NCBI GenBank assembly: GCA_024274915.1
Contig: JAJSAC010000034.1
Location: 1 to 43,169, forward strand
DNA from: Thermodesulfobacteriota bacterium
GTDB lineage: Bacteria; Thermosulfidibacterota; Thermosulfidibacteria; Thermosulfidibacterales; B14-G1
Direction of reading: 5' to 3'
DNA length: 43,169 nt
The notes beneath the pieces are model-generated. The model worked only from the letters and a program-made list of their open reading frames with translations. It was not told the origin of the DNA and ran no database searches. A program made the translations under genes and the position numbers. Numbering within the stretch: the first letter of the stretch is position 1; each line of letters starts with the position of its first letter. This document shows, piece by piece, positions 1,139 to 43,169 of this stretch.

Positions 1139-1396
1139 CAGGACTTCTCCCAAAATTCCCTTCCTGGTAAAGGTATCATGGTTCAGAATCCTGGATTTTC
1201 CATCTCCAACAAGTGAAAGGGCGGGGCATTCCTCCCTTGCCCATGGCTGATAGCTGATGGCTCATGGCTCATGGCTCATGGCTGATAACAACTATGAGCA
1301 TTGAACCATGAACTACGAGCTATGAACTATGAGCTATCATCTCTGCGGTCGGAACGCCTCGCCCTGACCCATAAAACAAAAATGGGGGAAGTCCTG
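1139..1396 (+). repeat. Palindromic MITE-like repeat, copy A (258 bp)
   Basis: This is one of four copies in the window. The outer ends form an inverted repeat: CAGGACTTCTCCCA at the left and TGGGGGAAGTCCTG at the right. An inner inverted pair (AGGGCGGGGCATTCC at 1218-1232 and GGAACGCCTCGCCCT at 1351-1365) encloses the core. The core at about 1236-1340 consists of 7-bp units. The left half has TGATAGC/TGATGGC/TCATGGC units and the right half has CTATGAG/CTATGAA/CCATGAA units. The left units are near reverse complements of the right ones, so the whole can fold back on itself. No clear target duplication is visible here. The copy fills most of the 391-bp gap between uvrB and the gene at 1483; nothing else was seen in that gap. 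Confidence 0.85.
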
Positions 1397-1482
1397 CTGA
1401 AAGGGGTGGAACTTGCGCTTATAGGGTGGTAGTTGTTGAGGCCCGGGAGAGAGTCCTTTAGGTTTGGAAGGGGAGGCCTTTT

Positions 1483-2055
1483 GTGGATCTCAAGAGGGAG
1501 ATACCCAGGCAGGTGTTTCATCTCATCAATGGCACCATCATCGCCCTGGCCTATACCCGGTGGGAGGCCCGGGTGGGGTGGGTCCTCATGGCCATGGCCG
1601 TGGTGGGGGCCTTTCTGTCCTGGCGCCACACCAGGAAGCCCTTTCCCTGGGCGGAGCCTCTGTTAGATCTCCTGGATCGTCCCCACGACATCCGACATTT
1701 CCCGGCCAAAGGCGCTGTCCTTTATGGCTTGGCGGTGGGGCTTTCCCTGGTAGTTTACCCCTCCTATGCTGCCCTAGGGGGGATTGCTGTCCTGGCTTGT
1801 GGAGATGCCCTCTCCACTTTGGTGGGCAAGGCCTGGGGGAAGAGGCCCTGGCCCTGGAACAGGCGTCTCTCTGTGGAGGGGAGCCTGGCCTTCTTCATAG
1901 GAGGCACCATCTACGCTTCCCTTTTTATTCCCTTTCCCGCTGCTCTGGTGGGTGCCTTTGTGGGTGCTTTGGTGGAGACGGTGCCCTGGCCTCTGGACGA
2001 CAATGTCACTATCCCCCTGGCCGTGGGGGGACTCCTGGCCCTCCTTTTCTATTGA
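1483..2055 (+). CDS. Diacylglycerol/polyprenol kinase family membrane protein
   Basis: This is a 190-residue, very hydrophobic protein resembling the SEC59/VTE5 CTP-dependent lipid kinase family (dolichol, phytol or diacylglycerol kinases). Family-like features are GDALSTLVGKAWGKRPWPWN near residues 107-127, then SVEGSLAFFIGG, and VETVPWPLDDNVTIPLAVG near the C-terminus. About five or six membrane segments are apparent. The GTG start at 1483 follows a GGGAGG ribosome-binding site at 1471-1476. The substrate cannot be read from the sequence: polyprenol or another isoprenoid alcohol is likely from the family, but phosphatidate-type substrates are possible. It stands alone, with tRNA-Val immediately downstream. 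Confidence 0.75.
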   Translation: MDLKREIPRQVFHLINGTIIALAYTRWEARVGWVLMAMAVVGAFLSWRHTRKPFPWAEPLLDLLDRPHDIRHFPAKGAVLYGLAVGLSLVVYPSYAALGGIAVLACGDALSTLVGKAWGKRPWPWNRRLSVEGSLAFFIGGTIYASLFIPFPAALVGAFVGALVETVPWPLDDNVTIPLAVGGLLALLFY

Positions 2056-2080
2056 CAACCCAATCCTTCTCTCCTAATAA
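2052..2080 (+). promoter_or_regulatory. Sigma-70-type promoter for tRNA-Val
   Basis: A perfect TTGACA at 2052-2057 overlaps the stop codon of the preceding gene. A 17-bp spacer leads to TAATAA at 2075-2080. Transcription would start near 2087, about eight bases before the tRNA. The -10 is imperfect. Confidence 0.55.
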
Positions 2081-2094
2081 GAGTAGCGATGGTA

Positions 2095-2169
2095 AGGGAC
2101 GTAGCTCAGGGGGAGAGCACTTGCTTGACGCGCAAGGGGTCGGCGGTTCAAATCCGCCCGTCCCTACCA
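2095..2169 (+). tRNA. tRNA-Val (anticodon GAC)
   Basis: A full cloverleaf can be drawn. The acceptor stem AGGGACG pairs with CGTCCCT, and the D stem GCTC pairs with GAGC. The anticodon arm is CTTGC-TTGACGC-GCAAG with anticodon GAC. The T arm is GGCGG-TTCAAAT-CCGCC. Discriminator A is followed by an encoded CCA at 2167-2169. GAC reads the GUC/GUU valine codons. A possible weak promoter for thrS (TTGACG at 2174) starts just after the tRNA. Confidence 0.96.
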
Positions 2170-2283
2170 TTCTTTGACGCCTGCCGTGTAAGTTCCCATT
2201 CTCTCCTTTGGGGGAGGGCCTTTCAGGGTTGAGGGGCTTGGTCCTCAGGGCCCTTTGGGTTGGGGGATTTGTGGAGGATAGCT

Positions 2284-4197
2284 ATGCCTAAAGTGTACAT
2301 AAAAGGGAATGGCAGTGTAGATGTGGATGAAGGGGTCCCTTATTTGGATGCCTTGAAAAGGGCTGGCTGCAGTGATCTGGAGCAGGTCTTGGCTGTGAAG
2401 GTGGACGGCGAGTTGAGGGATCTTACCGCTCCTGTGAACGGGGATTGCGAGGTTGAACCTGTCACTTTCCAGGATCCGGAAGGGAAGGAGACTTACTGGC
2501 ATTCGACAGCCCACATCATGGCTGCTGCCGTTAAGGAGCTCTTCCCCACGGCCAAGGTGACCATTGGCCCACCTGTGGAGACGGGCTTTTATTACGATTT
2601 CGATTATGAGAGGCCTTTCACACCCGAGGACCTGGAGAAGATCGAGGCCAAGATGGCCGAGATTATAGCCCGGGACGAGCCTTTTCACCGGGAAGAGGTC
2701 TCTAAGGATGAGGCCATTCGCCTTTTCAAGGAGATGGGCGAGAACTACAAGGTGGAGATCATAGAAGAGATTCCCGATGGGAAGGTCTCCCTCTATCGCA
2801 CCGGTGAGACCTTTGTTGATCTGTGTCGGGGACCCCATATTCCCTCTTCCGGCAAGGTGAAGGCGGTGAAGCTCCTTTCCGTGGCGGGGGCCTACTGGAG
2901 GGGGGACGAGAGGAACCCCATGCTCCAGCGTATCTATGGGGTCTCTTATCCCTCCAGGGAGGAGTTGGAGGGATATCTCCGTTTTCTGGAGGAGGCCCGA
3001 CGCAGGGATCACAGGCGTTTGGGCAAGGAGTTGGACCTCTTCTCCATCCGGGAGGAGGTGGGTCCCGGTTTCATCATCTACCATCCCAAGGGGGCCCTGG
3101 TGCGTACCATACTGGAGGACTTTGAGAAGCAGGAGCATCTCAAAAGGGGCTACCAGATTGTCATGGGGCCTACCCTCCTCAAGGCAGACTTGTGGAAAAA
3201 GTCGGGCCATTGGGACCACTATCGGGAGATGATGTACTTCACCCAGGTAGACGAAGAGCTTTACGGCATAAAGCCCATGAACTGCCTGGCTCATATTCTT
3301 ATTTACAAATCCAGAATCCGGAGTTACAGAGACTTGCCCCTGCGCTACTTCGAGATGGGCACTGTCCATCGCCATGAAAAGTCGGGGGTCCTTCATGGTC
3401 TCCTGCGGGCCAGGGCTTTTACCCAGGACGATGCCCATATATTCTGCACCCCAGATCAGCTCAAGGATGAAATCAAGGGAGTGCTAAACTTCATCCATGA
3501 TGTTATGAAGATGTTTGGATTTCCCTATGAGGTGGAGATCAGTACTAGGCCCGAGAAGTACATTGGTAGCCATGAGATGTGGGAGCGAGCCACAGGTGCA
3601 CTGAAAGAGTCTCTTGAAGAGCTGGGTTTGCCTTATGACATATGTGAGGGCGAGGGAGCCTTCTATGGACCCAAGATAGACGTGAAACTCACGGACGCCA
3701 TTGGGCGTAAGTGGCAGTGTGGCACTGTTCAGTGTGATTTCGCTCTCCCTGAGCGTTTCGATTTGACCTATGTGGATAGTGGTGGGGAGCGGAAAAGGCC
3801 GGCCATGGTCCACCGGGTGATCTTGGGGTCCATTGATCGATTTCTGGGTGTTCTCATCGAGCACTACGCCGGGGCCTTTCCTCTATGGTTGGCCCCCGTA
3901 CAGGCTCGGGTGATGAACATCACCGACGACCAGGCCGAGTATGCACAGGGGGTGGCGGATCGCTTGCGCCAGAGGGGATTCCGGGTGGAGGCAGACCTGC
4001 GTAACGAAAAGCTGGGGGCCAAGGTTCGGGATGCCCAAATGGAAAAGATCCCCTACATGCTCATAGTGGGCAAAAGGGAGATGGCCGAAGGCAGGGTGGC
4101 TGTGCGTCATCGGCGTCAAGGGGACCTGGGACCCATGGAATTGGAGGATATCATTCAACGGATGTGGCATGAGGTAGAAGTCAAGGCTTCAGAATAG
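2284..4197 (+). CDS. thrS: Threonyl-tRNA synthetase
   Basis: This class II aminoacyl-tRNA synthetase charges tRNA-Thr in the cytoplasm. From the chosen start it has 637 residues, normal for the family. The N-terminal TGS domain (about 1-60) is followed by the editing domain, with HSTAH near residue 77 and [10 protein letters not shown] near 177. The catalytic core contains MNCLAH with the zinc-ligand cysteine, [11 protein letters not shown], and [14 protein letters not shown]. The C-terminal anticodon-binding domain starts at about [14 protein letters not shown] 2284 is chosen because GTGGAGG at 2271-2277 is a good ribosome-binding site; an upstream in-frame GTG at 2260 would lie before it. 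No T-box leader was seen. infC follows after 36 bp, the common thrS-infC order. Confidence 0.97.
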
Positions 4198-4233
4198 GAG
4201 CCATTTTGTGAATCTTTGTTGGGAGGTGGAGCT

Positions 4234-4782
4234 ATAGCTGTCAGGGATGGTAAGGAAGACAAGATAAGGGCTAACGAACAGATCCGGGCCCGGGAGGTGA
4301 GGGTTATAGACGAGGAAGGTAGGCAGCTGGGTATTATGTCTCTGAAGGAGGCTCTGGCCGCTGCCAGGGAGCGGGACCTGGATCTAGTGGAGGTGGCGCC
4401 CAACGCCTCTCCACCTGTCTGCCGTATTATGGACCTGGGTAAGTACAAATATCAGCAGAAAAAGAAGGCCCAGGCCGCCAAGAAGAAGCAGCATGTCATC
4501 CAGGTGAAGGAAGTGCGTATGCGTCCCAAGATTGAGGAGCACGATTACCAGGTGAAACTCAAACACTTGAGGCGCTTTTTGGAGGAGGGGAACAAGGCCA
4601 AGGTGAATGTGCGTTTCAGGGGCCGGGAGTTGGCCTTTGTGAATGCAGGGAAACAGGTGCTAAACCGCATTATCCAGGATCTCTCTGACATAGCGGTGGT
4701 GGAGAAGCTCCCCGATATGGAGGGGAGGAACATGATCATGGTTTTGGCTCCCAAGAGTATGGCCAAATCCTCCGGTTCATAG
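4234..4782 (+). CDS. infC: Translation initiation factor IF-3, apparently starting at an ATA codon
   Basis: IF-3 binds the 30S subunit and proofreads the initiation codon. The protein (about 182 residues) has the N-domain ([45 protein letters not shown]), a lysine-rich linker, and the C-domain ([20 protein letters not shown], then RFRGRE and MIMVLAPK). No ATG or GTG precedes the conserved N-domain. The strong ribosome-binding site GGGAGGTGG (4221-4229) sits just before ATA at 4234. The in-frame TTGs at 4216 and 4219 lie upstream of or inside that site and are poor candidates. Rare AUU/AUA/AUC-type starts are known for infC, where IF-3 limits its own synthesis by rejecting the codon. rpmI and rplT, the usual next genes, are absent. 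Confidence 0.93.
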
Positions 4783-4789
4783 ACTCAAA

Positions 4790-5538
4790 ATGGGTGAGGC
4801 CTTTTTCAAGCCCCGTTCCGTGGCGGTGGTGGGGGCCTCGGGAGATCCCAGGAAGGTGGGCTATGCCATAGCCCGCAATCTATTGGGTTCTTTCTTTAGC
4901 GGGGATCTCTACTTTGTCAATCCCAGGAGGGAGACCATTCTGGGGAGGCCTGTATACCATCAGGTGAAGGCTCTTCATCATGCCTCTGAACAGGCCATTC
5001 TGCCTACTACTACCCAGGAGCTCGGTTTTCCAGTGGTGATGAGGCTTTCTTCTCCCCGGATATTGCACAAAAGCGACGTGGGAGGGGTGAAGGTGGGGCT
5101 GGCTACCCCGAGGGATGTGGAGGGGGCCTTTTATGAAATCACCCTGGGGGCTAGGAGGCGCTTTTCCCGGGCCCGAATCGGGGGTGTATTGGTGGATGAA
5201 TCGGCCTTCCAGAGGGTGGATGTTATTGTGGGTTTCACCAGGGTCGCTATTTTGGTCCCTTCGTGGTGTTTGGACTGGGAGGCATATAAGAGGTCCTAAA
5301 GGAGGTCACCTTCAGACTGGTTCCCCTCACTTTTGAAGAGGCGGCAGAGGTGATAAGAGAGACAAAGCGTCACTCTATTTTTTGAGAGGGGCAAGGGGAG
5401 GTGGGAAGATGGATGTGGATGCCTCGGGGAAGGCCCTGGTGGGTTTCTCCCTCGTTTCCTGGGGGGCTGGGCTTGACGAAGTGTGAGGCCAATCCCCTTA
5501 GGGTGACCCCCAGTGGATTTATGGCATTGGATGCCTGA
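4790..5538 (+). pseudogene. Decayed ADP-forming acyl-CoA (acetyl-CoA) synthetase
   Basis: This is the remnant of an NDP-forming acyl-CoA synthetase, whose intact form has about 700 residues. Residues 1-60 of the first open frame match the CoA-binding domain (FFKPRSVAVVGASGDPRKVGYA, then FVNPRR and ILGRPVY). The text then jumps straight to the ATP-grasp domain (GFPVVMRLSSPRILHKSDVGGV), so several hundred middle residues are deleted. Near 5240 the frame shifts: FGPFVVFGLGGI is read in another frame. VLKEV and VTFRLVPLTFEEAAEVI follow, with a stop near 5384. A last piece, EANPLRVTPSGFMALDA, ends at a stop at 5536-5538. The combination of deletion, frameshifts and stops makes a functional product very unlikely. 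The DRTGG gene next door commonly accompanies this family. Confidence 0.85.
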
Positions 5539-5558
5539 CTCGTTTTGGGAGGAGAACA

Positions 5559-6623
5559 ATGAAGACCGTTATGGTCCACGCTGTAGACAGGTATGCGGGT
5601 AAGACCTTGGTGGCTCTGGGTATGGGGAAGTACTTCCAAGAGATGGGCTGGAAGGTGGGTTATATCAAGCCCGTGGGAACCCTTCCCCTTTGGACGGAAG
5701 AGTACGGGCTGACAGATCAGGATGTCCTCTTTTTCTCCCGGACCCTGGGGCTAGACGATCCCATGGAACTCATGGCCCCTTATGTGGTGACACGGGACAG
5801 GCTTAGAGGCCTCTTCAAGGGTGAGGATGATGCGGCCTCCAGGGCCTTTCAGGCCTTTCAGGATATCTCTAGGGGCAAGGACCTGGTCATCGTGGGAGGG
5901 GGAGGCTCTGTCTATGAGGGGGCTTTTCTGGGGTTGTCGGGCTTCCAGGTGGCCCATAACTGGGATGTACCCGCCCTGTTGGTGGCTGTCTACGACGAGA
6001 GTCTCAGATCCCTGGACCTGGTGCTGGATGCCAAGGGGAGGTTGGGGGAGAGACTCTTGGGGGTGGTGGTGAACAAGGTTCCATCCCACGGGTGGCAGAT
6101 CCTCGTGGAGGATTTGGTGCCCTATATGGAGAGCAAGAGAGTGAGGATTCTGGGAATGATTCCCTTGGACTCCAGGCTCCAGGCCCTTTCCCTGGAAGAG
6201 ATCTTGACCCTAACGGGGGGGAGAGTCCTCACCGGTTCCCATGACGACGAGGTGTTGGTTGAGGGTTTTATTCTGGGTTCCATGGGGCCTGAAGCGGCGG
6301 TGTCCTACTTCAAGAAGGGCAAGGAGAAGGCCCTCATCGCCTCGGCGGACCGCTCTGACCTCATGTTGGCTGCCCTGGAGCACCCCATAAATGCCATCAT
6401 AGTGACGGAGGGGCTGCCACCATTGGATAGTGTCCTCCAGCGGGCCGAAGAGAGAAAGGTTCCCGTGATCCTGGTAGACATGGATACCCTGTCTGCCGTG
6501 GAACTCCTGGGCGTAAGATGGGGTATGGCGGCTTTGAGGGGCGAAAAGAAGGCGGCCAGGGCGGTGGAATTGGTGAAGGCTTCCCTCGACTGGGACACCT
6601 TTTCGGCGGCTTTGGGGGTGTAG
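5559..6623 (+). CDS. BioD-like / DRTGG domain P-loop protein
   Basis: This 354-residue protein joins a dethiobiotin-synthetase-like P-loop NTPase domain to a C-terminal DRTGG-type domain, as in the N-terminal part of some phosphotransacetylases. The P-loop is RYAGKTLVALGMGKYF near residue 11, followed by GYIKPVG. VIVGGGGSVYEGA and LLGVVVNKVP are typical of the BioD-like fold. The C-terminal part (INAIIVTEGLPPLDSVLQRA, then VPVILVDMDTLSAVELL) matches DRTGG domains. The ATG at 5559 follows GGGAGGAGAA. Family members often neighbour acyl-CoA synthetases and may act in acyl-phosphate or CoA metabolism or as regulatory domains. Its partner here is broken, so its present role is uncertain. Confidence 0.8.
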   Translation: MKTVMVHAVDRYAGKTLVALGMGKYFQEMGWKVGYIKPVGTLPLWTEEYGLTDQDVLFFSRTLGLDDPMELMAPYVVTRDRLRGLFKGEDDAASRAFQAFQDISRGKDLVIVGGGGSVYEGAFLGLSGFQVAHNWDVPALLVAVYDESLRSLDLVLDAKGRLGERLLGVVVNKVPSHGWQILVEDLVPYMESKRVRILGMIPLDSRLQALSLEEILTLTGGRVLTGSHDDEVLVEGFILGSMGPEAAVSYFKKGKEKALIASADRSDLMLAALEHPINAIIVTEGLPPLDSVLQRAEERKVPVILVDMDTLSAVELLGVRWGMAALRGEKKAARAVELVKASLDWDTFSAALGV

Positions 6624-7195
6624 TGAAGGTTCTGGCTGTGGAAGGAAGCCCCCGTAGGGGGGGAAACTCTTCTATTCTCCTAGATTGGGTATTGGATGGG
6701 ATAGAAGGGGGAGGAGGCCAGATTACCCGCCTTAGTGTTAGGGATTTGGATATTGCGCCATGTAAGGGGTGTGATGGTTGTTTGGCTACGGGATTATGCG
6801 TGATCAGAGATGATATGGATCTGGTGATGGAACATATATTGGATTGTCATCATCTGGTGGTGGCTACTCCCATCTATTTTTACCACCTCCCAGCCCCCCT
6901 TAAAGCTCTAATAGACCGTCTCCAACCTCTGTGGGTCAGAAAGGTTCTACTGAGGAGAGGTCCGGCTCAAAAGGGGGGGCTGCTTCCGGTGGGAGTGGGT
7001 GCCACTGGAGGAGGAAGGCTTTTTGATGGGATTCTCCTCACCTTCAATTGTGTGGCTCCCCTTCTTGGTCTTGAGTTGGTGGATCCCATGTTCGTTAGGG
7101 GGGTGGACGCCATGGGGGCCGTTGAGAATGTGAGGGGTCTGAGAGAGATAGCCAGAAGGAAGGGTGCGGAGTTGATGGCCTTTGGGCGAGGGTGA
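6623..7195 (+). CDS. Isf-like iron-sulfur flavoprotein (NAD(P)H-dependent FMN reductase family)
   Basis: This is a 190-residue flavodoxin-fold protein. LAVEGSPRRGGNSS near residues 4-17 is the FMN phosphate-binding loop. ATPIYFYHLPAPLKALIDR matches the second FMN contact region. Between them PCKGCDGCLATGLC gives the spacing C-x2-C-x2-C-x5-C, the compact [4Fe-4S] motif of archaeal Isf-type flavoproteins. The likely role is electron transfer or reduction of small oxidants in an anaerobe. GTG 6623 is chosen because it begins exactly at the family N-terminus (VKVLAVEGSPR) and overlaps the stop of the upstream gene by one base, implying translational coupling. The open frame extends further upstream, but that part is glycine-rich out-of-frame text. 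Confidence 0.82.
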   Translation: MKVLAVEGSPRRGGNSSILLDWVLDGIEGGGGQITRLSVRDLDIAPCKGCDGCLATGLCVIRDDMDLVMEHILDCHHLVVATPIYFYHLPAPLKALIDRLQPLWVRKVLLRRGPAQKGGLLPVGVGATGGGRLFDGILLTFNCVAPLLGLELVDPMFVRGVDAMGAVENVRGLREIARRKGAELMAFGRG

Positions 7196-7238
7196 TCCTG
7201 GGGATGGAGTATATTTTTATTTAAAGAGGAGAGGGATC

Positions 7239-7706
7239 ATGAAAGAGGCGGTGGCAGAGGTGGTAAGGGAGAGTTCGGTCCTTATTGACAAAGAGGGGCT
7301 TTCCAACCTTTACGAGTCTGTTCTCAGGATAGCCGGGTTCGGCTTGGGGGGGATTTTCTATACCGCTGGCAAGAAGGCCGGGAGCAAAGGGGCGGTTCTT
7401 TTGAAAGATAGATTGGGAGTTGGTGGAAGGGACCTTATTGAGGCCATGGTTTTGGCCTTTGAAGTGGGTAACTGGGGTAAGATGAGGGTGGAAGAGGTGG
7501 ATGAAGAGCTGTACAGGGTTACGGTGACGGAGAACGTCCTAGTGAGTAGCCTGGAAAAGAAGAGGAAGAAGCCGGTTTGTCATCCTTTAGCGGGGTATAT
7601 AGCCGGTTTCTTCGAGCTGGCACTGGAAGATAAAGTGCAGGTCAAAGAAGGGGAGTGCATGGGCAAAGGAGACTCCGCCTGCATCTTCGAAGTGAAGGTG
7701 GGTTAG
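7239..7706 (+). CDS. V4R (4-vinyl reductase) domain protein
   Basis: This 155-residue protein matches the V4R small-molecule-binding domain. The diagnostic end is GECMGKGDSACIFEVKV, equivalent to the cysteine-containing GxC-GDxxCxFEV close of the family. V4R domains occur in bacteriochlorophyll synthesis proteins, in regulators and as free-standing proteins that bind hydrocarbons or tetrapyrrole-like ligands. ATG 7239 is chosen because AAAGAGGAGAGGG lies just before it; the open frame upstream has no support. It closes the plus-strand group with the DRTGG and Isf-like genes. What ligand it binds cannot be told from the sequence. Confidence 0.8.
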   Translation: MKEAVAEVVRESSVLIDKEGLSNLYESVLRIAGFGLGGIFYTAGKKAGSKGAVLLKDRLGVGGRDLIEAMVLAFEVGNWGKMRVEEVDEELYRVTVTENVLVSSLEKKRKKPVCHPLAGYIAGFFELALEDKVQVKEGECMGKGDSACIFEVKVG

Positions 7707-7738
7707 CCCACTCCGCCTGCTTTTAGTTCCTGCTTGTG

Positions 7739-8812: not shown

Positions 8813-8973
8813 AGCTCCTCTCCCAAATAAGGTTTTTTTATGTTATTAGCATTGGTATCTAAGGTTAGTCAACTAGAAAATGGGCTCTTGTTAGATTTTT
8901 CCTCCTCTTTCTTCCTTTCTGGAGAATCTGCAGAGCAGTTCTTCCCTCCTTCCCGGGAGGGGTCAGATATTGC

Positions 8974-9162
8974 TCAGAGCATGCCCTTAACTGTTCCTGT
9001 TCTTTTATAGATATACCCTTGAACAGCTAGGATTATTCCACCTAGGATCAGGGGACCCGTAGCGGCAGGGTAGTTTCTTTTGAAGATTGAAACTATGCCC
9101 GAGGCAACCAGGAAGATTCCTAAAAATATCCACATCATACCACTAATTTTTGAATGGTTCAT
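8974..9162 (-). CDS. Small two-segment membrane protein, unknown function
   Basis: This 62-residue protein has two hydrophobic stretches (MMWIFLGIFLVASGIVSIF and TGPLILGGIILAVQGYIY) separated by a short basic loop. The ATG at 9162 follows GGGAG on the minus strand. It lies 18 bp downstream of the Fis-like regulator and is probably cotranscribed with it. No family recognised. Confidence 0.6.
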   Translation of the reverse strand: MNHSKISGMMWIFLGIFLVASGIVSIFKRNYPAATGPLILGGIILAVQGYIYKRTGTVKGML

Positions 9163-9180
9163 TTTGGGATCTCCCTGTTT

Positions 9181-9429: not shown

Positions 9430-9608
9430 TCCTTTAATAGGGGAGATCTATTGGGGGAAACCTTATACCATACCCCTCGGCTAATCAAGGCGGGTGATAG
9501 AAAGGGGAGAGTACCCGGGATGGCTGAAACGGGCACTGTTGGCTTAGGAAGGTCTGTTTGCATCTTTTTGTGCCTCTTTACCTTTGCTATGGTGCTCCAA
9601 AAATAGCG

Positions 9609-10699: not shown

Positions 10700-10724
10700 G
10701 GGCATCAAGTATATAGGCTAACCC

Positions 10725-11019: not shown

Positions 11020-11035
11020 AAAACAGAGGTGGCTC

Positions 11036-12379: not shown

Positions 12380-12382
12380 GAG

Positions 12383-12595: not shown

Positions 12596-12598
12596 ACC

Positions 12599-36185: not shown

Positions 36186-36426
36186 CAGGAGTTCCCCCAG
36201 TTTTACCCTTAGGGATAAGGGCGGGGCGTTCCGACCGCAGAGATGATAGCTCATAGCTCATGGTTCATAGCTCATAGCTCGTAGTTCATAGCTGATAGCC
36301 ATCAGCTATCAGCCATCAGCCATGGGCAAGGGAGGAATGCCCCGCCCTTTCACTCGTTGGAGATGGAAAATCCAGGATTCTGAACATGATGCCTTTACCA
36401 GGAAGGGAATTTTGGGGGAAGTCCTG
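36186..36426 (-). repeat. Palindromic MITE-like repeat, copy C (241 bp)
   Basis: Opposite orientation to copies A and B. On the plus strand it opens CAGGAGTTCCCCCA and closes TTTGGGGGAAGTCCTG. The inner pair AGGGCGGGGCGTTCC / GGAATGCCCCGCCCT encloses the core. The heptamers are TCATAGC, TCATGGT, TCATAGC x2, TCGTAGT, TCATAGC and TGATAGC, then CATCAGC-type units; the two arms have unequal unit numbers. The adjoining 36168-36185 (TGTCAAGAGGAGCCCAAT) is also present beside copy D. No direct repeat was found at its edges. The rest of the gap to 36571 holds nothing else recognised. Confidence 0.85.
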
Positions 36427-36571
36427 GACCTTTAGATCTTGGGAGTGGGTGAGGAGAGCTTCTCGTGGGGTAGCCTTTCCACTCACTTTCCATACTTGAC
36501 ATGTAGGATAAGGAGGAATATATCTTTTCAAAATAAGGGTTTATTATTAATCTTTACCCATGGGGGGTGAT

Positions 36572-37291
36572 ATGCTTGACTTATTGGTCCTTTTGGCGTT
36601 CGCCATGGCCCTGGTCTCTTTTTTCTTTTGGCTTGTGAAGTTCCTCAGAAGGCAGGGTAAAACCCGTGATGAGAACCTCTGTTTTTGGTTGGCCAAGGAG
36701 GTGAACGGGAGGTGCGTAGAAGGGTCATGGTCTGGTTTTGGGGAGTTGATCCAGGGCATGGTAGATTTTGGCATAGGAGTCACCCAACCCAAGTACGTGG
36801 TGGTGACCCGGGATGGCGGGATGGATGTGGTCTTCTTTGAAATCGACGACAAGCCTTTTCATATTAGCGTTTCTAGTCCGTACACCTCCGCTTGGTGTGG
36901 GTGTATTATCCGGTCTGGAAATGCCCTGGCACCTCCCATGTTGGTTTTCAGGAGAGACGTAGGTGCCGCCGAGCTAGAGGGTTGCAGGGAGACACCTGAG
37001 AGGTGGCACAGGCGGGATTTAGAGGGAGGACCCCTAAAAGGTTATACGGTGGTCAGTCCCGATTTGGAGGGGGCTCTGGACGTATTGGGCAGGGGATTAG
37101 CCTCTCTGTTGGTCAAGGCTGCTAGGGCCGTGGAGGGCAGGGTGTTGCCAAGGCATTTGGCCCTTCAGGTGGTGGGTGATAGGGTGGCTCTTTACACTCA
37201 TCAGCGTGGGTTGACCGAAGTGGAGCACTTTCTGGCCCTTTTCGAGGGGGCCAAGGGGGTCTTGACCGTGCTCGCCGGGAACAGGGGGTAA
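36572..37291 (+). CDS. Hypothetical membrane-anchored protein
   Basis: This 239-residue protein has one N-terminal membrane segment (LDLLVLLAFAMALVSFFFWL, about 2-21), followed by a basic stretch and a soluble domain. No known motif was recognised. ATG 36572 is chosen over ATG 36560 because GGGGGGTGA lies between the two. The soluble part alternates strands and helices (KYVVVTRDGGMDVVFFEID; RHLALQVVGDRVALYTH), suggesting a compact globular cytoplasmic domain. It is monocistronic and converges on the DUF169 gene, with six bases between the stops. Confidence 0.65.
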   Translation: MLDLLVLLAFAMALVSFFFWLVKFLRRQGKTRDENLCFWLAKEVNGRCVEGSWSGFGELIQGMVDFGIGVTQPKYVVVTRDGGMDVVFFEIDDKPFHISVSSPYTSAWCGCIIRSGNALAPPMLVFRRDVGAAELEGCRETPERWHRRDLEGGPLKGYTVVSPDLEGALDVLGRGLASLLVKAARAVEGRVLPRHLALQVVGDRVALYTHQRGLTEVEHFLALFEGAKGVLTVLAGNRG

Positions 37292-37297
37292 AGAGCT

Positions 37298-38080
37298 TCA
37301 GACTTGGATGCCTACCTTCCGGGCCAGCTCTTCGTAGAGGGGGGGAAACTGAACCTGATGGAGCATATAGGGGACGAAGGGATACCGGTTACTACCCACC
37401 TGGGACCCAGCTTCTTTTAGCCCTTCTATGGTGGATGCCAACAAAGAGTAAGGGATGGATAGGACTATCTCGGTGTCTTGGGTGCCGGAAAAGACCCTGT
37501 CTCCCGTACCCGGTATAGTAATGATAGGGGCCCTCAGGAGGTAGGGGGCTACCAGATAGTCGCTGCAAGCTACCCTGCCGCTGGCCTGGGTTCTTACACT
37601 CTTTCCCGTAGTATAAGAGTATCCGTGAACCAGCTTCACTATCTGGGATGGGTCTCCGTAGACCACCACCAACGCTGGTTCTCTGGTGGCTTTGTACAAG
37701 GGTTCCAAGAGAATGGTTTTGTATTCTCGTTTCATGACATGCCATTCTTGCTCCCCTTCCCTCTCTCTAGATACCCAACCCACTTCTACCATAAAGCGGG
37801 AGAGGATCTCTTCGTTGGAAGCGTTGGGACTGGTCAGGAGATTGAGGGCTAGACCCCCTGGAATGCAGATATTGTCTTCCTTTTCTACGGCAACGGACCA
37901 GCCGTAAATCCTGGCCCAGGTCATAGCTTGGCAGAGAGTGATGCGGACCTTTCTGTCTCTGGGTTTCCGCGCCTTGGGGGGGAGGGTTTCTCCATCCGAA
38001 AGGTACGAGACCCCTACAGGTTGTGACTTCAGTCTAAGGAAGTGGGTGAGTCTTTCCGATAGCTTCTTTGCCTTTTCCAT
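37298..38080 (-). CDS. DUF169 family protein
   Basis: This 260-residue protein matches the DUF169 family, found mainly in anaerobes and archaea. Characteristic pieces are LKSQPVGVSYLSDGE near the start, TLCQAMTWAR near residue 70, NICIPGGLALNLL near 90 and GRVACSDYLVAPYL near 187. The three well-placed cysteines in these segments suggest metal or Fe-S binding, but the biochemical role is not established. ATG 38080 is chosen because GGAGGG precedes it; the frame runs on upstream without support. It follows the HlyD gene by 11 bp on the same strand. Confidence 0.82.
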   Translation of the reverse strand: MEKAKKLSERLTHFLRLKSQPVGVSYLSDGETLPPKARKPRDRKVRITLCQAMTWARIYGWSVAVEKEDNICIPGGLALNLLTSPNASNEEILSRFMVEVGWVSREREGEQEWHVMKREYKTILLEPLYKATREPALVVVYGDPSQIVKLVHGYSYTTGKSVRTQASGRVACSDYLVAPYLLRAPIITIPGTGDRVFSGTQDTEIVLSIPYSLLASTIEGLKEAGSQVGSNRYPFVPYMLHQVQFPPLYEELARKVGIQV

Positions 38081-38091
38081 ATTTCCCTCCT

Positions 38092-39216
38092 TTACTGGGT
38101 TGTCTCTTCCCTGATGGGGTTCCACCAGGGACCTGGCCCCACTTTGATAACCCCATCACCAGGCATTCCTGGTTTGAGGAGGTGGTTCTTGTTCTCTTTT
38201 ACGCAGAGCTTTACGGCGAAGGTGTACTGAACCCGTTCCTTGTGGGTCTGGACCTCTTTAGGGGTGAATTCTGCCTTGGGGGCAACGTAGCAGACCCGGG
38301 CTGGAAAGGGGGTGTCAGGGAAGGCGTCCACGTAAACCCTGGCTTCCTGGCCCAGGGCGATGCGGCCCATTTGGGGTTCGGGGATGTAGATTTTGAGGTA
38401 GAGGCTGTCTAGGTTTGTCACTATCACCAGGGGGGTGCCAGCGGTGACCACCTCCCCTTCTTCCACCAGTTTTTCTACCACCCTTCCTTTGACGGGGGAT
38501 GGTATCAGGGTGTCTGCTAAGAAAGCTTGGGCTTTTTCCAGATTGGCTTGGGCGGTGGCCAGGGCCGATCTCAGAATCCCTATCTCCTTTTTCCTGAGGG
38601 TGATTTCTCTCCTCTTGGCCAGGGCCGTTTCCAGGGCTGCTCTGGCCCTGTTCAATTCTTGTTGGGCCTCATCCATCTGGGCTCTGGCACTTTTTGCTGC
38701 TGCTGCCACTTCGTCCAGTCTTCTCTGGGAGATGACCTTTCTATCCCGCAGGGCTTGGAATCGCTTCCAGTCCTTGTTCCATTTTTCCCATTGGGCTTGG
38801 GCACCCTGGAGGCGGGCCCGGGCTCCTTTCACCATGGCCTCTGCTTCCTGGATCTTCTTTCCCACCACTTCCCGCGTGAGATTTAGAGCAACTTTGGCCT
38901 TATCCACTTCCCTTTTTAGCCTGGTTACCTGGGCCTGGGCTGCTTTCATCCGAGCCTGGATTTCTCGGGAATCTAGGATGGCAATGGGGGCCCCCAGGGC
39001 TACAGAACCTCCCTCTTTCACCATGAGACGAGCCACTTTCCCCGGAATTTTGGGAGACACTTCTACTTCATCACCTTCTATGATGCCACTTCCCCATATA
39101 ATGTTGGGGGGTGATTTCTTCTGGGTGAGGCTATTGGACAGGAGGATGAGCCCACCTAGACTGATCCCTGCCACTATAACGATGAAAAGCCCTTTTACCT
39201 CCTTTTTCATTTTCAT
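38092..39216 (-). CDS. HlyD/EmrA-type membrane fusion protein
   Basis: This is a roughly 374-residue periplasmic adaptor for an export system. It has one N-terminal membrane segment (GLFIVIVAGISLGGLILL), a first biotinyl-lipoyl half (GIIEGDEVEVSPKIPGKVAR), a long coiled coil (about 75-205), the second half (ADTLIPSPVKGRVVEKLVEE), and a beta-barrel domain (LYLKIYIPEPQMGRI). A cognate ABC transporter or MFS pump and an outer-membrane channel normally sit next to it but are absent here. ATG 39216 is preferred (AGGTG six bases before); GTG 39225 and ATG 39210 are in-frame alternatives. Confidence 0.88.
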   Translation of the reverse strand: MKMKKEVKGLFIVIVAGISLGGLILLSNSLTQKKSPPNIIWGSGIIEGDEVEVSPKIPGKVARLMVKEGGSVALGAPIAILDSREIQARMKAAQAQVTRLKREVDKAKVALNLTREVVGKKIQEAEAMVKGARARLQGAQAQWEKWNKDWKRFQALRDRKVISQRRLDEVAAAAKSARAQMDEAQQELNRARAALETALAKRREITLRKKEIGILRSALATAQANLEKAQAFLADTLIPSPVKGRVVEKLVEEGEVVTAGTPLVIVTNLDSLYLKIYIPEPQMGRIALGQEARVYVDAFPDTPFPARVCYVAPKAEFTPKEVQTHKERVQYTFAVKLCVKENKNHLLKPGMPGDGVIKVGPGPWWNPIREETTQ

Positions 39217-39341
39217 GGGAAACACCTGCCTCCCGGGCAGAAGCCACAGTGTCTCCTCTTTCGCCCATTCTTTGTGGTGTTCTTCTCCTTCTTTTTGGGG
39301 TGAAACCCCTCGTTTTCTCCCTTTTTCACCATCCTTCTCCC

Positions 39342-39368
39342 TTTATACCAACTCTCCTTGAGGGTCAA
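39342..39368 (-). promoter_or_regulatory. Possible promoter for the HlyD gene
   Basis: On the minus strand TTGACC (39368-39363) and TATAAA (39347-39342) with a rather short 15-bp spacer, some 125 bp before the start codon. Confidence 0.35.
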
Positions 39369-39416
39369 AGGAGGGGGTTGACAGAGGAGGTGAATGGGTA
39401 GCAGTTTTTTTGTGTG

Positions 39417-39908
39417 ATGATGAGGGACAGGGAATTCCCACTGGAAGGACTTATCCTTGCCTTTAGGGAAGAAGAGTTCAGGAGATACGTCCGGGGGTTC
39501 ATTATGGACTCCCGTCGCCTTTTGAACGAGCTGGAGCCGTCGGAGCTTCATCTCATTGCCGACTATGTACCCGGGGTGTTTTGGAGAAAGCTTAAAGGAA
39601 GTGGTCTTCGCCTCTATGCCATGGACGGATTGATGGAGTATTACTTCGGTCACGATCCTGGAGACACATCCCTGGATTTCGCCGAGGACCTGCTTATTCT
39701 TAATTCCCTTTTTTGGGAAAGGTACGGGAGGAGGTCATTCAGGAAGGCTCACAGGGTGAGGCCCGGCGAGAACTACTATTTGGCCTTTGGAGCCTTCTTT
39801 TACAGACTTTCCTATGTGCAGCGGGGTTCCAGCATTTACAGACTCATGAACTTGTATTACAGACCCGTAGTGGAAGAGTTGAGGGAATTGAAAGGAGGGA
39901 GGGGTTGA
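39417..39908 (+). CDS. Hypothetical protein upstream of cutA
   Basis: This 163-residue soluble protein is rich in Arg, Glu, Tyr and Phe (for example DREFPLEGLILAFREEEFRR and SLFWERYGRRSFRKAHRVRP). No membrane segment, signal or known motif was recognised. Start codons GTG 39414, ATG 39417 and ATG 39420 are in a row, with no clear ribosome-binding site; 39417 is an arbitrary choice among them. Its stop overlaps the cutA start by four bases, so the two are translationally coupled, which supports it as a real gene. Confidence 0.6.
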   Translation: MMRDREFPLEGLILAFREEEFRRYVRGFIMDSRRLLNELEPSELHLIADYVPGVFWRKLKGSGLRLYAMDGLMEYYFGHDPGDTSLDFAEDLLILNSLFWERYGRRSFRKAHRVRPGENYYLAFGAFFYRLSYVQRGSSIYRLMNLYYRPVVEELRELKGGRG

Positions 39909-40237
39909 AAGAGTATATCCAGGTTGTGACCACCCTCGACGATGAAGATAAAGCCAGGTCCCTGGCCAGGGAGGTGGTGAAGGCCAGGGTGGTAGCCTGC
40001 GCTCAAGTGCTTGGTCCTATCTCTTCTATTTATTGGTGGCAGGGTGAGCTGGAGGAGACTGGGGAGTATATGGTGGTGATGAAGACTGTGAAAGGGTGCT
40101 ACCCGCGGCTCGAGAAGCTTATAAAAGAGCGGCATTCTTATACTGTACCGGAGATTCTGGCTTTTCCTGTTGTGGTGGGTAATGAGGAGTATCTGGAGTG
40201 GTTAGAGGAGGAGACGGAAGAGGGAGCCGGGGGCTAA
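39905..40237 (+). CDS. cutA: CutA1 divalent-cation tolerance protein
   Basis: This 110-residue trimeric ferredoxin-like protein of the CutA1 family is linked to copper/divalent metal tolerance, although its real role is debated. Typical motifs: VVTTLDDEDKARSLAREVVK near residue 6, VVACAQVLGPISSIYWWQGE near 30, MVVMKT, and HSYTVPEILAFPV near 75. The TTG start at 39905 follows AAGGAGGGAGG and overlaps the previous stop (TTGA). An upstream-extended frame to 39713 overlaps the hypothetical gene and lacks support. Confidence 0.93.
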   Translation: MKEYIQVVTTLDDEDKARSLAREVVKARVVACAQVLGPISSIYWWQGELEETGEYMVVMKTVKGCYPRLEKLIKERHSYTVPEILAFPVVVGNEEYLEWLEEETEEGAGG

Positions 40238-40242
40238 AGGTG

Positions 40243-41445
40243 TCAGGGGATGGTGGTGACTTTAACCACCCTTGTCTTGAAGGGTTCTAGGGAAGTGATG
40301 ACCACCCTCTTTATCTCTTTGCCCTGCCAAGAGTAGAGGCTGTGGATCACTTTGAATTTTGAACCCTCTTGGCCCACATAGACCATCACATGGCCTTGAA
40401 GGAAGAGAAGGGTTTTTCCTGGTGAAGCCTCCTGGAGAACCTCCTCAAGGCTTTCGGAATGAGACGGAGTCCACAGGGTTTTGCCTATCTCTGCCTGCTG
40501 GGACGAGTTGCGGGGGAGGATGATACCTGTCGTGGCGAAAATCTCTCTAACCAGGAGAGAGCAGTCCACTCCACCTTTACCCCCCCAAGAGTAGGTTTCT
40601 CCAAGGAGATTTGTAGCCAGGTTTATGAGGGTCTCTCCCTGGAAGGGAAGGTAGCCTCTGGCGGCCAGTCTCCTGGGTATGTAGAAGGCTCTCCATGGGG
40701 GGGAGGTGTGGTGTGAGGGAAGGAGGACTCTATAGAACCTCTTCTGGGTGCCTTTTAGGGGTAGTCTTGTGCCCATGGGGAGGGTGAAGAGGGGGATGCT
40801 CCCCTCCAGGGGGCTGGAGAAGACGGGGCTGTGGGGAGCAGTGATCACAACGAAAGGGGAGTGGTTGACGTAAGCTTGGAGTTCCCGGTGAGATAGGGAT
40901 ACCAGATCCTTCACTGGTATCCATCCAGGGTTGTAAGTGGAGAGAACAAAGGCCCATTTCTCGTCGCCAGTGGTGTGGACGATGGCTACAGGGGTACCGG
41001 GGGGGATGACGGAGTAGAGGTTACGGTCCAAGTCCCCTTCTCGGGCTTCTTCGGGACTCTCGTAGGTGGGCTTGTATGAGGGAAGACCCCTTAATGAGGT
41101 GGGTTTGACTACCAGGGCGAAAGAGACGTGGACCCGAGGGCGGATCTCGTTCAAGGCCATTGTCTGCTGTATCTTCTTGTAGAAGGCGGTGGGGACCTGG
41201 CTGCCGTCTCGGAAATAGCGGGGTTGGAGAGGGGGGAGGTTTTCAACAGACAGGAAGATCTTGAGAACGCTCCGATTTAGGAAGGGGGGGAGGCGGAGGG
41301 GGTCTGTCATGAGAGGGGTGAGGGTGAGGATGCGATTGTTGACCTTCTGAAGGTCTATTCCCCTGGCCGTAGACGCGAGGATTGTAAGGAGAAATAGGAG
41401 GGGAAAGGGACCTGCCTTGCGTCCTCCCTTTCCCCTGAGGATCAT
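40243..41445 (-). CDS. Secreted SH3 / NlpC-P60 peptidoglycan endopeptidase
   Basis: This 400-residue protein has a signal peptide (FPLLFLLTILASTARG). A central region (about 120-255) shows two SH3b-like parts (PPGTPVAIVHTTGDEKWAFV; SPVFSSPLEGSIPLFTLPMG) and a C-terminal NlpC/P60 cysteine peptidase. The catalytic cysteine is in GGKGGVDCSLLVREIF near residue 300 and the histidine in FLQGHVMVYVG near 360. Such enzymes cut peptide stems of peptidoglycan in the periplasm. It lies 14 bp after htrA on the same strand and is probably cotranscribed. The ribosome-binding site is weak, hinting at coupling. Confidence 0.88.
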   Translation of the reverse strand: MILRGKGGRKAGPFPLLFLLTILASTARGIDLQKVNNRILTLTPLMTDPLRLPPFLNRSVLKIFLSVENLPPLQPRYFRDGSQVPTAFYKKIQQTMALNEIRPRVHVSFALVVKPTSLRGLPSYKPTYESPEEAREGDLDRNLYSVIPPGTPVAIVHTTGDEKWAFVLSTYNPGWIPVKDLVSLSHRELQAYVNHSPFVVITAPHSPVFSSPLEGSIPLFTLPMGTRLPLKGTQKRFYRVLLPSHHTSPPWRAFYIPRRLAARGYLPFQGETLINLATNLLGETYSWGGKGGVDCSLLVREIFATTGIILPRNSSQQAEIGKTLWTPSHSESLEEVLQEASPGKTLLFLQGHVMVYVGQEGSKFKVIHSLYSWQGKEIKRVVITSLEPFKTRVVKVTTIP

Positions 41446-41459
41446 GGTAGTTGGCCCTG

Positions 41460-42857
41460 CTATTTCATCTGGATGGCCACGTAGAAGGAGGAATTACCCC
41501 TTCTTATGAGGAAGGCCACCACTTCTCCGGGTTTTGTTCTGGCCATGGCCATGCGGAAGTCTTCCAGGTTCCTGATGCGCTTCCTGTTTACCCGGAGGAT
41601 GATGTCGCCGTGTTGGATACCTGCTTCGTCTGCAGGACTGCCCGGTTCCACTTGGGTAACGTAGACGCCTCCCTTGATCCCCGTCTGGTTCATGATTTCA
41701 GGAGGCAGGGGTGCTACCTTGAGGCCGAGTTTCACATGTTCTCCGCCGGGCTCGGGCAAGGCTGCTTCCTCCTCGGGCATGGTGCCGATTTTCACCCGGA
41801 TAGTTTTGATCTTCCCGTTGCGTAACACCTTTATCTCCACCGTGGTTCCTGGGGGCGTAATGGCCACGAGACGAGGAAGCTCTCTTATGTCTTTGATTTT
41901 CTTGCCCCGGTACTGGATAATGATGTCGCCTTCTTTCAGTCCTGCCTTGGCAGCAGGGCTATCTTTCATGACTTGGGTGATAACGGCTCCCTGGGCCTTT
42001 TGGAGGCCAAAGGACTTGGCCAACTCGGGGGTGAGGGCTTGAATGTAGACTCCTAGCCAGCCTCTGATCACCTTTCCCCTGGTCTTGAGCTGGGGTAGAA
42101 TTTCTTTGGCCATATTGATGGGAATGGCGAAACCAATGCCTTGACCTTGGGCCACAATTGCTGTGTTGATACCGATAACTTCACCCTCCATGTTGATGAG
42201 GGGGCCACCGCTGTTTCCAGGGTTGATGGATGCGTCGGTTTGGAGGAAGTTGTCGTAGGGACCCTCTCCTATGACCCGGCCCTTGGCGCTAATTATACCA
42301 GCCGTGACGGTGTAGCTAAGACCGAAGGGATTACCTACGGCGATGACCCATTGACCAATTGCCACTCTATCCGAGTCCCCTAGTTTTGCCGCTACCAGTT
42401 TTTTGCCTTTGGGGTCTATCTTGATGAGGGCTATGTCTGTTTTGGGGTCGGCACCCACCAGTTTGGCGTCGTAGGTACTGCCGTCGTGGAGTTTCACTTT
42501 GATTTCCGTGGCCCCTTTCACCACGTGGTTGTTGGTGAGAATGTAGCCGTGGGAGTCGATGATGAAGCCCGAACCCAGGGAACGTCTCTTGAACTTCCTG
42601 GGCGTACCGGGGAAAAAGGGTCCGAATTTGTTTCCGAAAAAGAAGCGGAACATATCTTCGGGTCCCAAGACCCGGCGTTCAATGACCTGAGTTGTGTAAA
42701 TGTTGACCACGAATTCGTTGGCCTCTTTGGCGATCTTGGTAAAATCGGGTAAAGCTACCGTGACCGTTTCCCTTGCGGTGACGGGGCCTGAGAAGACTGA
42801 TAGGGCAAAGGCAACTGCCAGTGCCAGCAACACTCCCTTTTTTGTGTTTCTTTTCAT
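41460..42857 (-). CDS. degP: Periplasmic serine protease of the DegP/HtrA (Do) family
   Basis: This 465-residue protease/chaperone for misfolded envelope proteins has a signal peptide at about 1-28. The catalytic triad is complete: H111 (TNNHVVKGA), D141 (KTDIALIKID) and S216 (NPGNSGGPL). Two PDZ domains follow: RGWLGVYIQALTPELAKSFG near 270 and VYVTQVEPGSPADEAGIQHG near 390. The start follows AGAGGAGG. The protease tops a two-gene unit with the NlpC/P60 protein. The promoter lies next to repeat copy D. The family has DegP, DegQ and MucD members; the exact name is not decidable. Confidence 0.95.
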   Translation of the reverse strand: MKRNTKKGVLLALAVAFALSVFSGPVTARETVTVALPDFTKIAKEANEFVVNIYTTQVIERRVLGPEDMFRFFFGNKFGPFFPGTPRKFKRRSLGSGFIIDSHGYILTNNHVVKGATEIKVKLHDGSTYDAKLVGADPKTDIALIKIDPKGKKLVAAKLGDSDRVAIGQWVIAVGNPFGLSYTVTAGIISAKGRVIGEGPYDNFLQTDASINPGNSGGPLINMEGEVIGINTAIVAQGQGIGFAIPINMAKEILPQLKTRGKVIRGWLGVYIQALTPELAKSFGLQKAQGAVITQVMKDSPAAKAGLKEGDIIIQYRGKKIKDIRELPRLVAITPPGTTVEIKVLRNGKIKTIRVKIGTMPEEEAALPEPGGEHVKLGLKVAPLPPEIMNQTGIKGGVYVTQVEPGSPADEAGIQHGDIILRVNRKRIRNLEDFRMAMARTKPGEVVAFLIRRGNSSFYVAIQMK

Positions 42858-42936
42858 GAAAGGACCTCCTCTTTGGGTGGATGTGCTGAGAGTTTACTCC
42901 GCAGGATTAAAAAAGTTGTGTGACTCATGGGAAAAG

Positions 42937-42965
42937 AGCCTAGTATCCCTTGCCTGGGATGTCAA
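42937..42965 (-). promoter_or_regulatory. Promoter for degP at the edge of repeat copy D
   Basis: On the minus strand a perfect TTGACA (42965-42960), 17 bp, then TAGGCT (42942-42937). The -35 belongs to the conserved GGGCTCCTCTTGACA that also borders copy C. The -10 matches three of six consensus bases. Confidence 0.45.
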
Positions 42966-42976
42966 GAGGAGCCCAA

Positions 42977-43169
42977 CAGGAGTTCCCCCACTTTTACTCT
43001 TATGGGTCAGGGCGGGGCGTTCCGAGCGCAGAGATGATAGCTCATAGTTCATAGCTCGTAGTTCATGGTTCATAGCTCATAGTTGCTATCAGCCATGAGC
43101 CATCAGCTATCAGCCATGGGCAAGGGAGGAATGCCCCGCCCTTTCACTTGTTGGAAAGAAAAAATCCAG
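42977..43169 (-). repeat. Palindromic MITE-like repeat, copy D (cut by window edge)
   Basis: The first 193 bp of a copy in the same orientation as copy C. It opens CAGGAGTTCCCCCA. The inner pair AGGGCGGGGCGTTCC / GGAATGCCCCGCCCT is present. The core runs TCATAGT, TCATAGC, TCGTAGT, TCATGGT, TCATAGC and TCATAGT, then TGCTATCAG, CCATGAG, CCATCAG, CTATCAG and CCATGGG. The distal end lies outside the window. Confidence 0.85.

What the first reader, a model, noticed from the sequence alone, without database searches (positions are those of the whole stretch)
1139..43169. Four-copy MITE-like element whose core is two complementary arrays of 7-bp units
Copies at 1139-1396 and 29515-29764 (plus) and 36186-36426 and 42977-43169 (minus) share three nested layers. 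The outer ends are inverted CAGGA(C/G)TTCCCCCA. An inner inverted pair AGGGCGGGGC(A/G)TTCC follows. The centre has one half of tandem heptamers of the TCATGGC/TCATAGC/TGATAGC type and the other half of near reverse complements (CTATGAG/CTATGAA/CCATGAA). Unit number and order differ between copies while the flanks stay similar, so the heptamer arrays seem to expand, shrink or exchange. The element could form a cruciform or a long RNA hairpin, and all copies lie between genes. I know no named family with this exact build.
Basis: partly seen in the sequence, partly recalled or inferred. Interest (0 to 1): 0.75.

Follow-up and report, generated by a model that had tools for sequence, protein, structure and literature searches.

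The report
Promoter-hugging mini-transposon with heptamer hairpin core
The four copies belong to a family of about 80 small non-coding transposons that ride on a larger transposon's enzyme, land at a fixed spot just upstream of gene promoters, and carry in the middle a hairpin-forming pair of 7-letter repeat arrays whose length changes in exact steps of seven.

Summary
The four window copies belong to a family of roughly 75-85 copies in this 2.03 Mb draft genome. They are MITEs: terminal inverted repeats CAGGA(C/G)TTCCCCCA, 8-11 bp target-site duplications at 26 of 41 testable copies (2/1203 in shuffled pairings), and a multi-copy insertion sequence with the same 19-bp ends and an IS4-like DDE transposase. 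The heptamer arrays change in exact 7-nt steps (left arm 2-7 units, right arm 2-8) but the two arms do not covary. They are a derived, exchangeable cassette: some copies keep 96-100% identical flanks around a different core, which resembles the main core of the same MITE in a sister genus. Inverted heptamer hairpins also sit in a loop of all three cobalamin riboswitches of this genome. After the duplication comes CCTTGAC(A), then a -10 box 16-18 bp on. A promoter-like pair in the expected 4-nt window occurs at 40% of ends versus 2% of intergenic positions; 30 of 40 complete elements have one. The parental IS and relatives with ~38% identical transposases show the same. Verdict: new variant of a known kind.

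The parts
1139..1396 (+). MITE copy 1, complete (258 bp); no clear target duplication left
1139..1152 (+). copy 1 left terminal inverted repeat (CAGGACTTCTCCCA)
1218..1232 (+). copy 1 left inner inverted arm AGGGCGGGGCATTCC
1241..1289 (+). copy 1 left heptamer arm, 7 units (CCATGGC TGATAGC TGATGGC TCATGGC x3 TGATAAC)
   Evidence: L018
1292..1339 (+). copy 1 right heptamer arm, about 7 units (CTATGAG ... CTATCA)
   Evidence: L018
1351..1365 (+). copy 1 right inner inverted arm GGAACGCCTCGCCCT
1383..1396 (+). copy 1 right terminal inverted repeat
1124..1129 (-). -35-like TTGCCA beginning 9 nt outside the left end of copy 1, read outward
   Evidence: L018 Lend
29515..29764 (+). MITE copy 2, complete, between divergent dnaK (HSP70) and argS
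29506..29514 (.). target-site duplication TTTTTGGCC, left
29765..29773 (.). target-site duplication TTTTTGGCC, right
29776..29781 (+). -35-like TTGATT directly after the duplication, read towards argS
   Evidence: L019
29615..29656 (+). copy 2 left heptamer arm, 6 units
   Evidence: L019
29659..29706 (+). copy 2 right heptamer arm, about 7 units
   Evidence: L019
36186..36426 (-). MITE copy 3, complete, right end upstream of a tRNA-Gly(CCC) gene; rearranged core
36168..36173 (-). TTGACA 12 nt outside copy 3 (17-nt spacer to CATTTT at 36145-36150), ahead of tRNA-Gly
   Evidence: L020 Rend
36063..36134 (-). tRNA-Gly(CCC) gene downstream of that promoter
42977..43169 (-). MITE copy 4, cut by the end of the contig (left end missing)
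42960..42965 (-). TTGACA 11 nt outside copy 4, ahead of a trypsin/PDZ (HtrA-like) protease gene at 41460-42857
   Evidence: L021 Rend

Best explanation
It is a non-autonomous DNA transposon family (a MITE), about 240-260 bp long. Shown by sequence: terminal inverted repeats, target-site duplications of about 8-11 bp, roughly 80 copies, and an insertion sequence in the same genome and genus with the same ends and an IS4-like DDE transposase. Inferred: that transposase mobilises the MITE in trans. Shown: insertions are precisely placed. The duplicated 8-11 bp lie directly upstream of an outward-reading -35 box (CCTTGACA), with a -10 box 16-18 bp further on, so the element parks at about -38 to -47 of a promoter without breaking it. 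Inferred: the transposase (or its target complex) prefers promoter DNA, either by reading the -35 motif or by meeting promoter-bound RNA polymerase. Shown: the inside is an exchangeable cassette. An older core shared with a sister genus has been replaced in most copies by two opposed arrays of the heptamer YTSATRG/CYATSAR. Inferred: the arrays grow and shrink by slippage in whole units, and copies recombine with each other. The arrays can fold back into a long imperfect hairpin or cruciform. I find no evidence that this hairpin has a function for the host; it is most likely tolerated cargo.
For: Copy number: 56 exact, 92 with up to 2 mismatches, control 3; 59 left and 65 right ends. Duplications: 26/41 against 2/1203. 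Same-ended IS at contig ends in the genome, two sides of one insertion joined by the duplication GTCAATCC; transposase tail 52% identical to a 433-aa homologue matching NCBIfam IS4_3 (4.6e-10, far below its cut-off) and, weakly, Pfam DDE_Tnp_1 (3.3e-4). Promoter phase: -35 with at least 5/6 matches starting 10-13 nt out at 30/122 ends against 1.8% of intergenic positions; -35/-10 pair score >=8 at 40% against 2.0%; outward 30, inward 6; starts 2 nt after the duplication, spacer peak at 17 nt, 30/40 complete elements with at least one such end; 19/34 of these -35s have a -10 against 47/280 other intergenic ones, p 2e-6. Same phase in sister genus G004 and at IS ends of G041 and G098. Core exchange: L026 flanks 99/98% identical to heptamer copy L040, core 99% identical to L065 whose flanks are 83/85%; ancestral-type core in G004. 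7-nt steps.
Against: No complete autonomous IS is assembled in this genome: only its ends are seen, at contig ends, so mobilisation in trans is inferred. Fifteen of 41 copies show no duplication, so some are old or recombined. Promoters are predicted by consensus, not mapped; 10 of 40 complete elements have no promoter-like site at either end, and the single IS of G047 does not show the rule. Selection against other insertion sites could contribute to the pattern, although it does not explain a fixed phase.
Confidence: 0.82

Rival explanations
1. The elements are host regulatory structures: a hairpin or cruciform beside promoters that controls the neighbouring genes, kept and spread by selection.
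For: Fixed position next to promoters, strong predicted folding of the heptamer core (z -3 to -8), excess between divergent genes (9/17 against 31/136 gaps, p 0.016).
Against: Target duplications and IS-like ends show insertion. Arm lengths do not covary. The core is swapped for an unrelated one without loss of the flanks. The related genome G002 has the dnaK-argS gene pair without the element.
Confidence: 0.12
2. The promoter phase results only from selection: insertions are random, and those just upstream of -35 are the harmless survivors.
For: No copy lies in an ORF (0/38), as purifying selection predicts. The position upstream of -35 should be mild.
Against: The start positions peak within 2-3 nt (11-13 nt from the end, 2 nt after the duplication). 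Harmless sites further upstream or between convergent genes should be at least as common, but only 4 of 36 pairs were convergent in the rough census.
Confidence: 0.15
3. The heptamer hairpin is itself a mobile or self-copying module that invades hosts such as this MITE and riboswitch loops.
For: Inverted heptamer arrays also occur in the same loop of cobalamin riboswitches and in intergenic regions of other phyla, mostly with one polarity (23 of 27, p 3e-4) and with matching unit order between arms (p 0.0005, n=14).
Against: No ends, no target duplication and no enzyme are associated with the hairpins. 183 of 210 arrays found in other genomes have no inverted partner. The sample was preselected by pattern and includes related genomes. 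Slippage plus local inversion may suffice.
Confidence: 0.15

Closest known systems
BOX elements of Streptococcus pneumoniae (PMC3049150)
   Same: Small composite MITE-like repeat in many intergenic copies, terminal repeats resembling those of a resident IS, target duplications, a variable number of tandem internal modules between fixed ends, predicted RNA secondary structure; one BOX forms a composite with riboswitches.
   Different: boxB modules are larger and lie in one direction, not opposed heptamer arrays. BOX is over-represented between convergent genes, whereas this family sits at a fixed phase upstream of -35 boxes. No shared sequence was claimed or tested.
IS4-superfamily insertion sequences (NCBIfam IS4_3, IS4_2, IS701 as nearest models)
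   Same: DDE transposase of the DDE_Tnp_1 type, inverted ends, 8-11 bp duplications.
   Different: Nearest models score far below their family cut-offs (39 bits against 160), so this is a distant branch.
Heptanucleotide-repeat P6b stem of the cyanobacterial tRNA-Leu(UAA) intron (PMC3488679, PMC4476775)
   Same: Degenerate 7-nt repeats on both sides of a stem pair into a hairpin inside a structured RNA. Length changes by whole repeats, sometimes on one side only, and the entire stem is replaced by another repeat class in some lineages.
   Different: Different heptamers (TDNGATT, NNTGAGT); a host RNA stem, not a transposon core. The riboswitch hairpins found here are the closer parallel.
Intergenic heptamer arrays (TAACTGA in Beggiatoaceae PMC4679880; GGGAATC in Xanthomonas PMC4692102; Geobacter PMC2700814)
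   Same: Seven-base tandem arrays between genes, scattered across phyla, variable in unit number.
   Different: Other sequences, mostly direct arrays, and not described there as cores of transposons.

Membership tests
MITE (non-autonomous DNA transposon) | terminal inverted repeats | tested here: met
   CAGGA(C/G)TTCCCCCA at both ends, 59 left and 65 right ends
MITE (non-autonomous DNA transposon) | target-site duplication | tested here: met
   26/41 against 2/1203 shuffled
MITE (non-autonomous DNA transposon) | short, no transposase gene, many copies | tested here: met
   195-260 bp, about 75-85 copies, no ORF spans a copy
MITE (non-autonomous DNA transposon) | autonomous partner with the same ends | tested here: met
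   IS ends CAGGA(C/G)TTCCCCCAGTTTT at six contig ends, transposase C-terminus in frame; a full copy is not assembled
MITE (non-autonomous DNA transposon) | actual mobilisation by that transposase | not testable with these tools
   needs a transposition assay
IS4 family | transposase reaches the curated IS4 model cut-off | tested here: not met
   best NF033590, 39.1 bits against cut-off 160; so 'IS4-like DDE', not filed as IS4
IS4 family | DDE_Tnp_1 catalytic domain | tested here: inconclusive
   PF01609 E 3.3e-4, 20.9 bits against cut-off 23, C-terminal part only
BOX elements | boxA-(boxB)n-boxC sequences | not tested
   BOX models were not available here; only the architecture is compared, from PMC3049150
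Rfam RNA family | match to a curated structured RNA | tested here: not met
   the window elements match no family at gathering score
Conserved structured RNA | arms covary | tested here: not met
   arm lengths uncorrelated; no base-level covariation test was run

The most novel reading that the evidence does not exclude
A distant branch of IS4-like transposases finds its targets through bacterial promoters, by contacting sigma70 RNA polymerase or the -35 box, and inserts at -38 to -47. This would make it a bacterial counterpart of eukaryotic retrotransposons that insert upstream of polymerase III genes. Its MITE carries a heptamer hairpin module that also spreads into riboswitch loops and across phyla.
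Probability: 0.3. Interest if true: 0.85.

Novelty: new variant of a known kind. Interest (0 to 1): 0.62.

Why it matters
Transposons that reach a safe but active place in a gene-dense genome are of general interest. A fixed insertion phase beside -35 boxes, seen in a MITE, its parental IS and distant relatives, can be tested directly in vitro with RNA polymerase. It would also let the elements serve as markers of promoters in uncultured bacteria. The heptamer core ties together scattered observations (intron stems, intergenic arrays, and here riboswitch loops) as one kind of slippage-driven hairpin, and the exchange of cores between otherwise identical copies shows a transposon being rebuilt by recombination.

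Tried and rejected
Arms covary: rejected for this genome. The family is an RNA family: no Rfam match. Heptamer hairpins of other phyla lie in known RNAs: none in 18 loci. Transposase on plasmids or in viral contigs: none. The ARAGORN tRNA-Gly at 1117-1202 overlaps the element and is not supported by Rfam; treated as false. A base-exact empty site at dnaK-argS: G002 has the gene pair without the element, but its spacer differs too much to place the junction. Strand preference of the RNA hairpin: the plus strand of the core is more stable in 49 of 58 copies but by only 2 kcal/mol on average, and with the inner stem included the minus strand is more stable; not used.
Full report
Observation. The four copies are present at the stated places. 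Copy 2 is exact to the base, because a 9-bp duplication (TTTTTGGCC) abuts both stated limits. Copy 4 is cut by the contig end. Many of the 77 contigs of this 2.03 Mb draft genome end inside such an element, as expected for a repeat that breaks assembly. The inner 15-mer occurs 56 times exactly and 92 times with up to two mismatches, against 3 for the reversed control. A profile search and an end count give 59 distinct left ends and 65 distinct right ends. Some insertions are split over two contigs, so I put the number at roughly 75-85 copies, about 1% of the genome.

It is a transposon. Of 41 copies whose two flanks could be compared, 26 carry a duplication of about 8-11 bp (up to 13 counting ambiguous end bases). 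Random pairing of left and right flanks gives 2 in 1203. Six contig ends carry a different sequence behind the same terminus, CAGGA(C/G)TTCCCCCAGTTTT. The four right-end pieces read in frame as the C-terminus of a protein, and the same protein tail lies in the same-genus genome G001. One left end and one right end share GTCAATCC at the junction, so they are two sides of one insertion of this IS with an 8-bp duplication. A full-length homologue of 433 aa in genome G047 has ends CAGGACTTTACCC.../...GGGTAAGGTCCTG. It matches the NCBIfam IS4_3 model at 4.6e-10 and Pfam DDE_Tnp_1 weakly, both below the curated cut-offs. I therefore call it IS4-like and do not file it in the IS4 family. That this enzyme moves the MITE is an inference from the shared ends.

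Where it inserts. This was not part of the finding. Reading outward from 122 distinct element and IS ends, hexamers with at least 5 of 6 matches to TTGACA start at 11, 12 or 13 nt in 29 cases and are rare elsewhere. At 10-13 nt the share of ends is 30/122, against 1.8% of 61,230 oriented intergenic positions from 393 kb of the same genome. The opposite orientation gives 6. A -35/-10 pair with 16-18 nt spacing and at least 8 of 12 matches is found at 40% of ends against 2.0% of controls. Relative to the duplication, TTGA starts typically 2 nt after it: the duplicated bases are followed by CCTTGAC, CCTTGAA or a close variant in many copies. The number of -10-like hexamers peaks at a 17-nt spacer. 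Of these adjacent -35 sites, 19/34 have a -10 at 16-18 nt, against 47/280 other intergenic and 148/2380 coding -35-like sites (p 2e-6 and 3e-14), so these look like real promoters. Thirty of 40 complete elements have at least one such end (window 9-15 nt). In the window the sites precede tRNA-Gly (copy 3), an HtrA-like protease (copy 4) and, weakly, argS (copy 2).

The same phase holds for the family at large. It is seen for MITEs of the sister genus G004 (TTGAAA, TTGATA, TTGACA at 11-13 nt), at an IS end of G001, and at three right ends of IS relatives with about 38% identical transposases in the unrelated genomes G041 and G098 (TTGAC at 11, 15 and 12 nt; read off the sequences). The one IS of G047 does not show it. 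No ORF of 90 aa or more spans any of 38 complete copies. Nine of 17 elements in 393 kb lie between divergent genes, against 31 of 136 other gaps (p 0.016; rough ORF calls). Selection against gene insertions surely acts, but a peak of 2-3 nt width points to targeting. Whether the transposase reads CCTTGA or meets RNA polymerase cannot be told from sequence. Because nearly 90% of -35-like hexamers lie in coding DNA, and the chosen ones have a -10 much more often than other intergenic ones, recognition of the hexamer alone is not the whole story.

The core. In 57 heptamer copies the left arm has 2 to 7 units and the right arm 2 to 8, in phase, joined by AA. Loss and gain are in whole units. Arm lengths are uncorrelated (0.13, p 0.33). 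The heptamer core folds far better than shuffled sequence on either strand (z -3 to -8), and the alternative core only moderately (z -2.1 to -3.6). The whole of copy 2 folds with z -6.7 on the plus and -8.0 on the minus strand. Complementary units make the hairpin, but no covariation of arm lengths maintains it.

The core is a cassette. Five of 64 copies have another core, CCATATAATCG...CAAATATGG. Copy L026 has flanks 99% and 98% identical to heptamer copy L040, but its core is 99% identical to that of L065, whose flanks are 83% and 85% identical; L065 in turn has flanks 100% and 96% identical to heptamer copies L063 and L066. Left-flank and right-flank types are combined nearly at random. So copies exchange inner parts by recombination. 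In G004 the same MITE family has a core related to the alternative one, and L062 in this genome and L385 and L376 in G004 hold short heptamer runs beside the older core. I infer that the heptamers replaced an older core.

Heptamers elsewhere. In 393 kb, 38 arrays of two or more units lie in the MITE and 3 outside. The other places are the cobalamin riboswitches. All three in this genome, both in G004 and one in G002 carry opposed heptamer arrays or remnants of them in the loop between CCACTG and GGGAAGG, where G001, G003, most of G005 and the other G002 riboswitch have a 4-5 bp stem. A hairpin there lengthens a peripheral helix, as heptanucleotide repeats do in the P6b stem of the cyanobacterial tRNA-Leu intron (PMC3488679, PMC4476775). 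Arrays of the same heptamer occur in many phyla. In the sample 27 of 210 have an inverted array within 150 bp, with one polarity in 23 of 27 distinct pairs and arms of matching order more often than shuffled partners (p 0.0005, n=14). The sample is preselected and includes related genomes, so these two results are leads.

Known or new. The architecture is that of BOX elements (PMC3049150): fixed transposon ends, variable inner modules, a resident IS with similar ends. Heptamer arrays as such are known (PMC4679880, PMC4692102, PMC2700814). New, as far as I can tell, are opposed heptamer arrays as the exchangeable core of a MITE, heptamer hairpins in riboswitches, and above all the fixed insertion phase at -35 boxes.

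Noticed in passing
flanks of all copies; window 36168-36173, 42960-42965, 29776-29781, 1124-1129: Outward-reading -35 boxes at a fixed 11-13 nt from the element ends; became the main result.
   Followed up: yes
L433, L439, L444 (G000), L432, L441 (G004), L440 (G002): Opposed heptamer arrays inside one peripheral loop of cobalamin riboswitches; relatives have a short plain stem there.
   Followed up: partly
L404 (G000 contig 6, 5800-9700): One-sided heptamer arrays between an AAA_14/DUF4143 ATPase gene and several small genes, one with a weak HicB-like antitoxin match; no MITE ends there.
   Followed up: partly
L068, just left of the MITE copy: A second, shorter element of about 95 bp with ends CCAGGAGTTCC/GGAACTCCTG and no heptamer core, next to a MITE copy; possibly a related coreless family.
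   Followed up: no
window 36168-36184 and 42960-42976: The right flanks of copies 3 and 4 share TTGGGCTCCTCTTGACA although they precede unrelated genes (tRNA-Gly and an HtrA-like protease).
   Followed up: no
L111, L120, L169, L183, L192, L203, L206 and other loci: Inverted heptamer hairpins between genes in several other phyla, nearly all with the polarity TSATRG...CYATSA.
   Followed up: partly
window 1117-1202: ARAGORN reports a tRNA-Gly overlapping the start of copy 1; Rfam does not support it, probably false.
   Followed up: yes
G001 contig 102 (L364, L422): An IS copy whose left end runs straight into the transposase C-terminus: an internal deletion that looks like a MITE in the making.
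   Followed up: no
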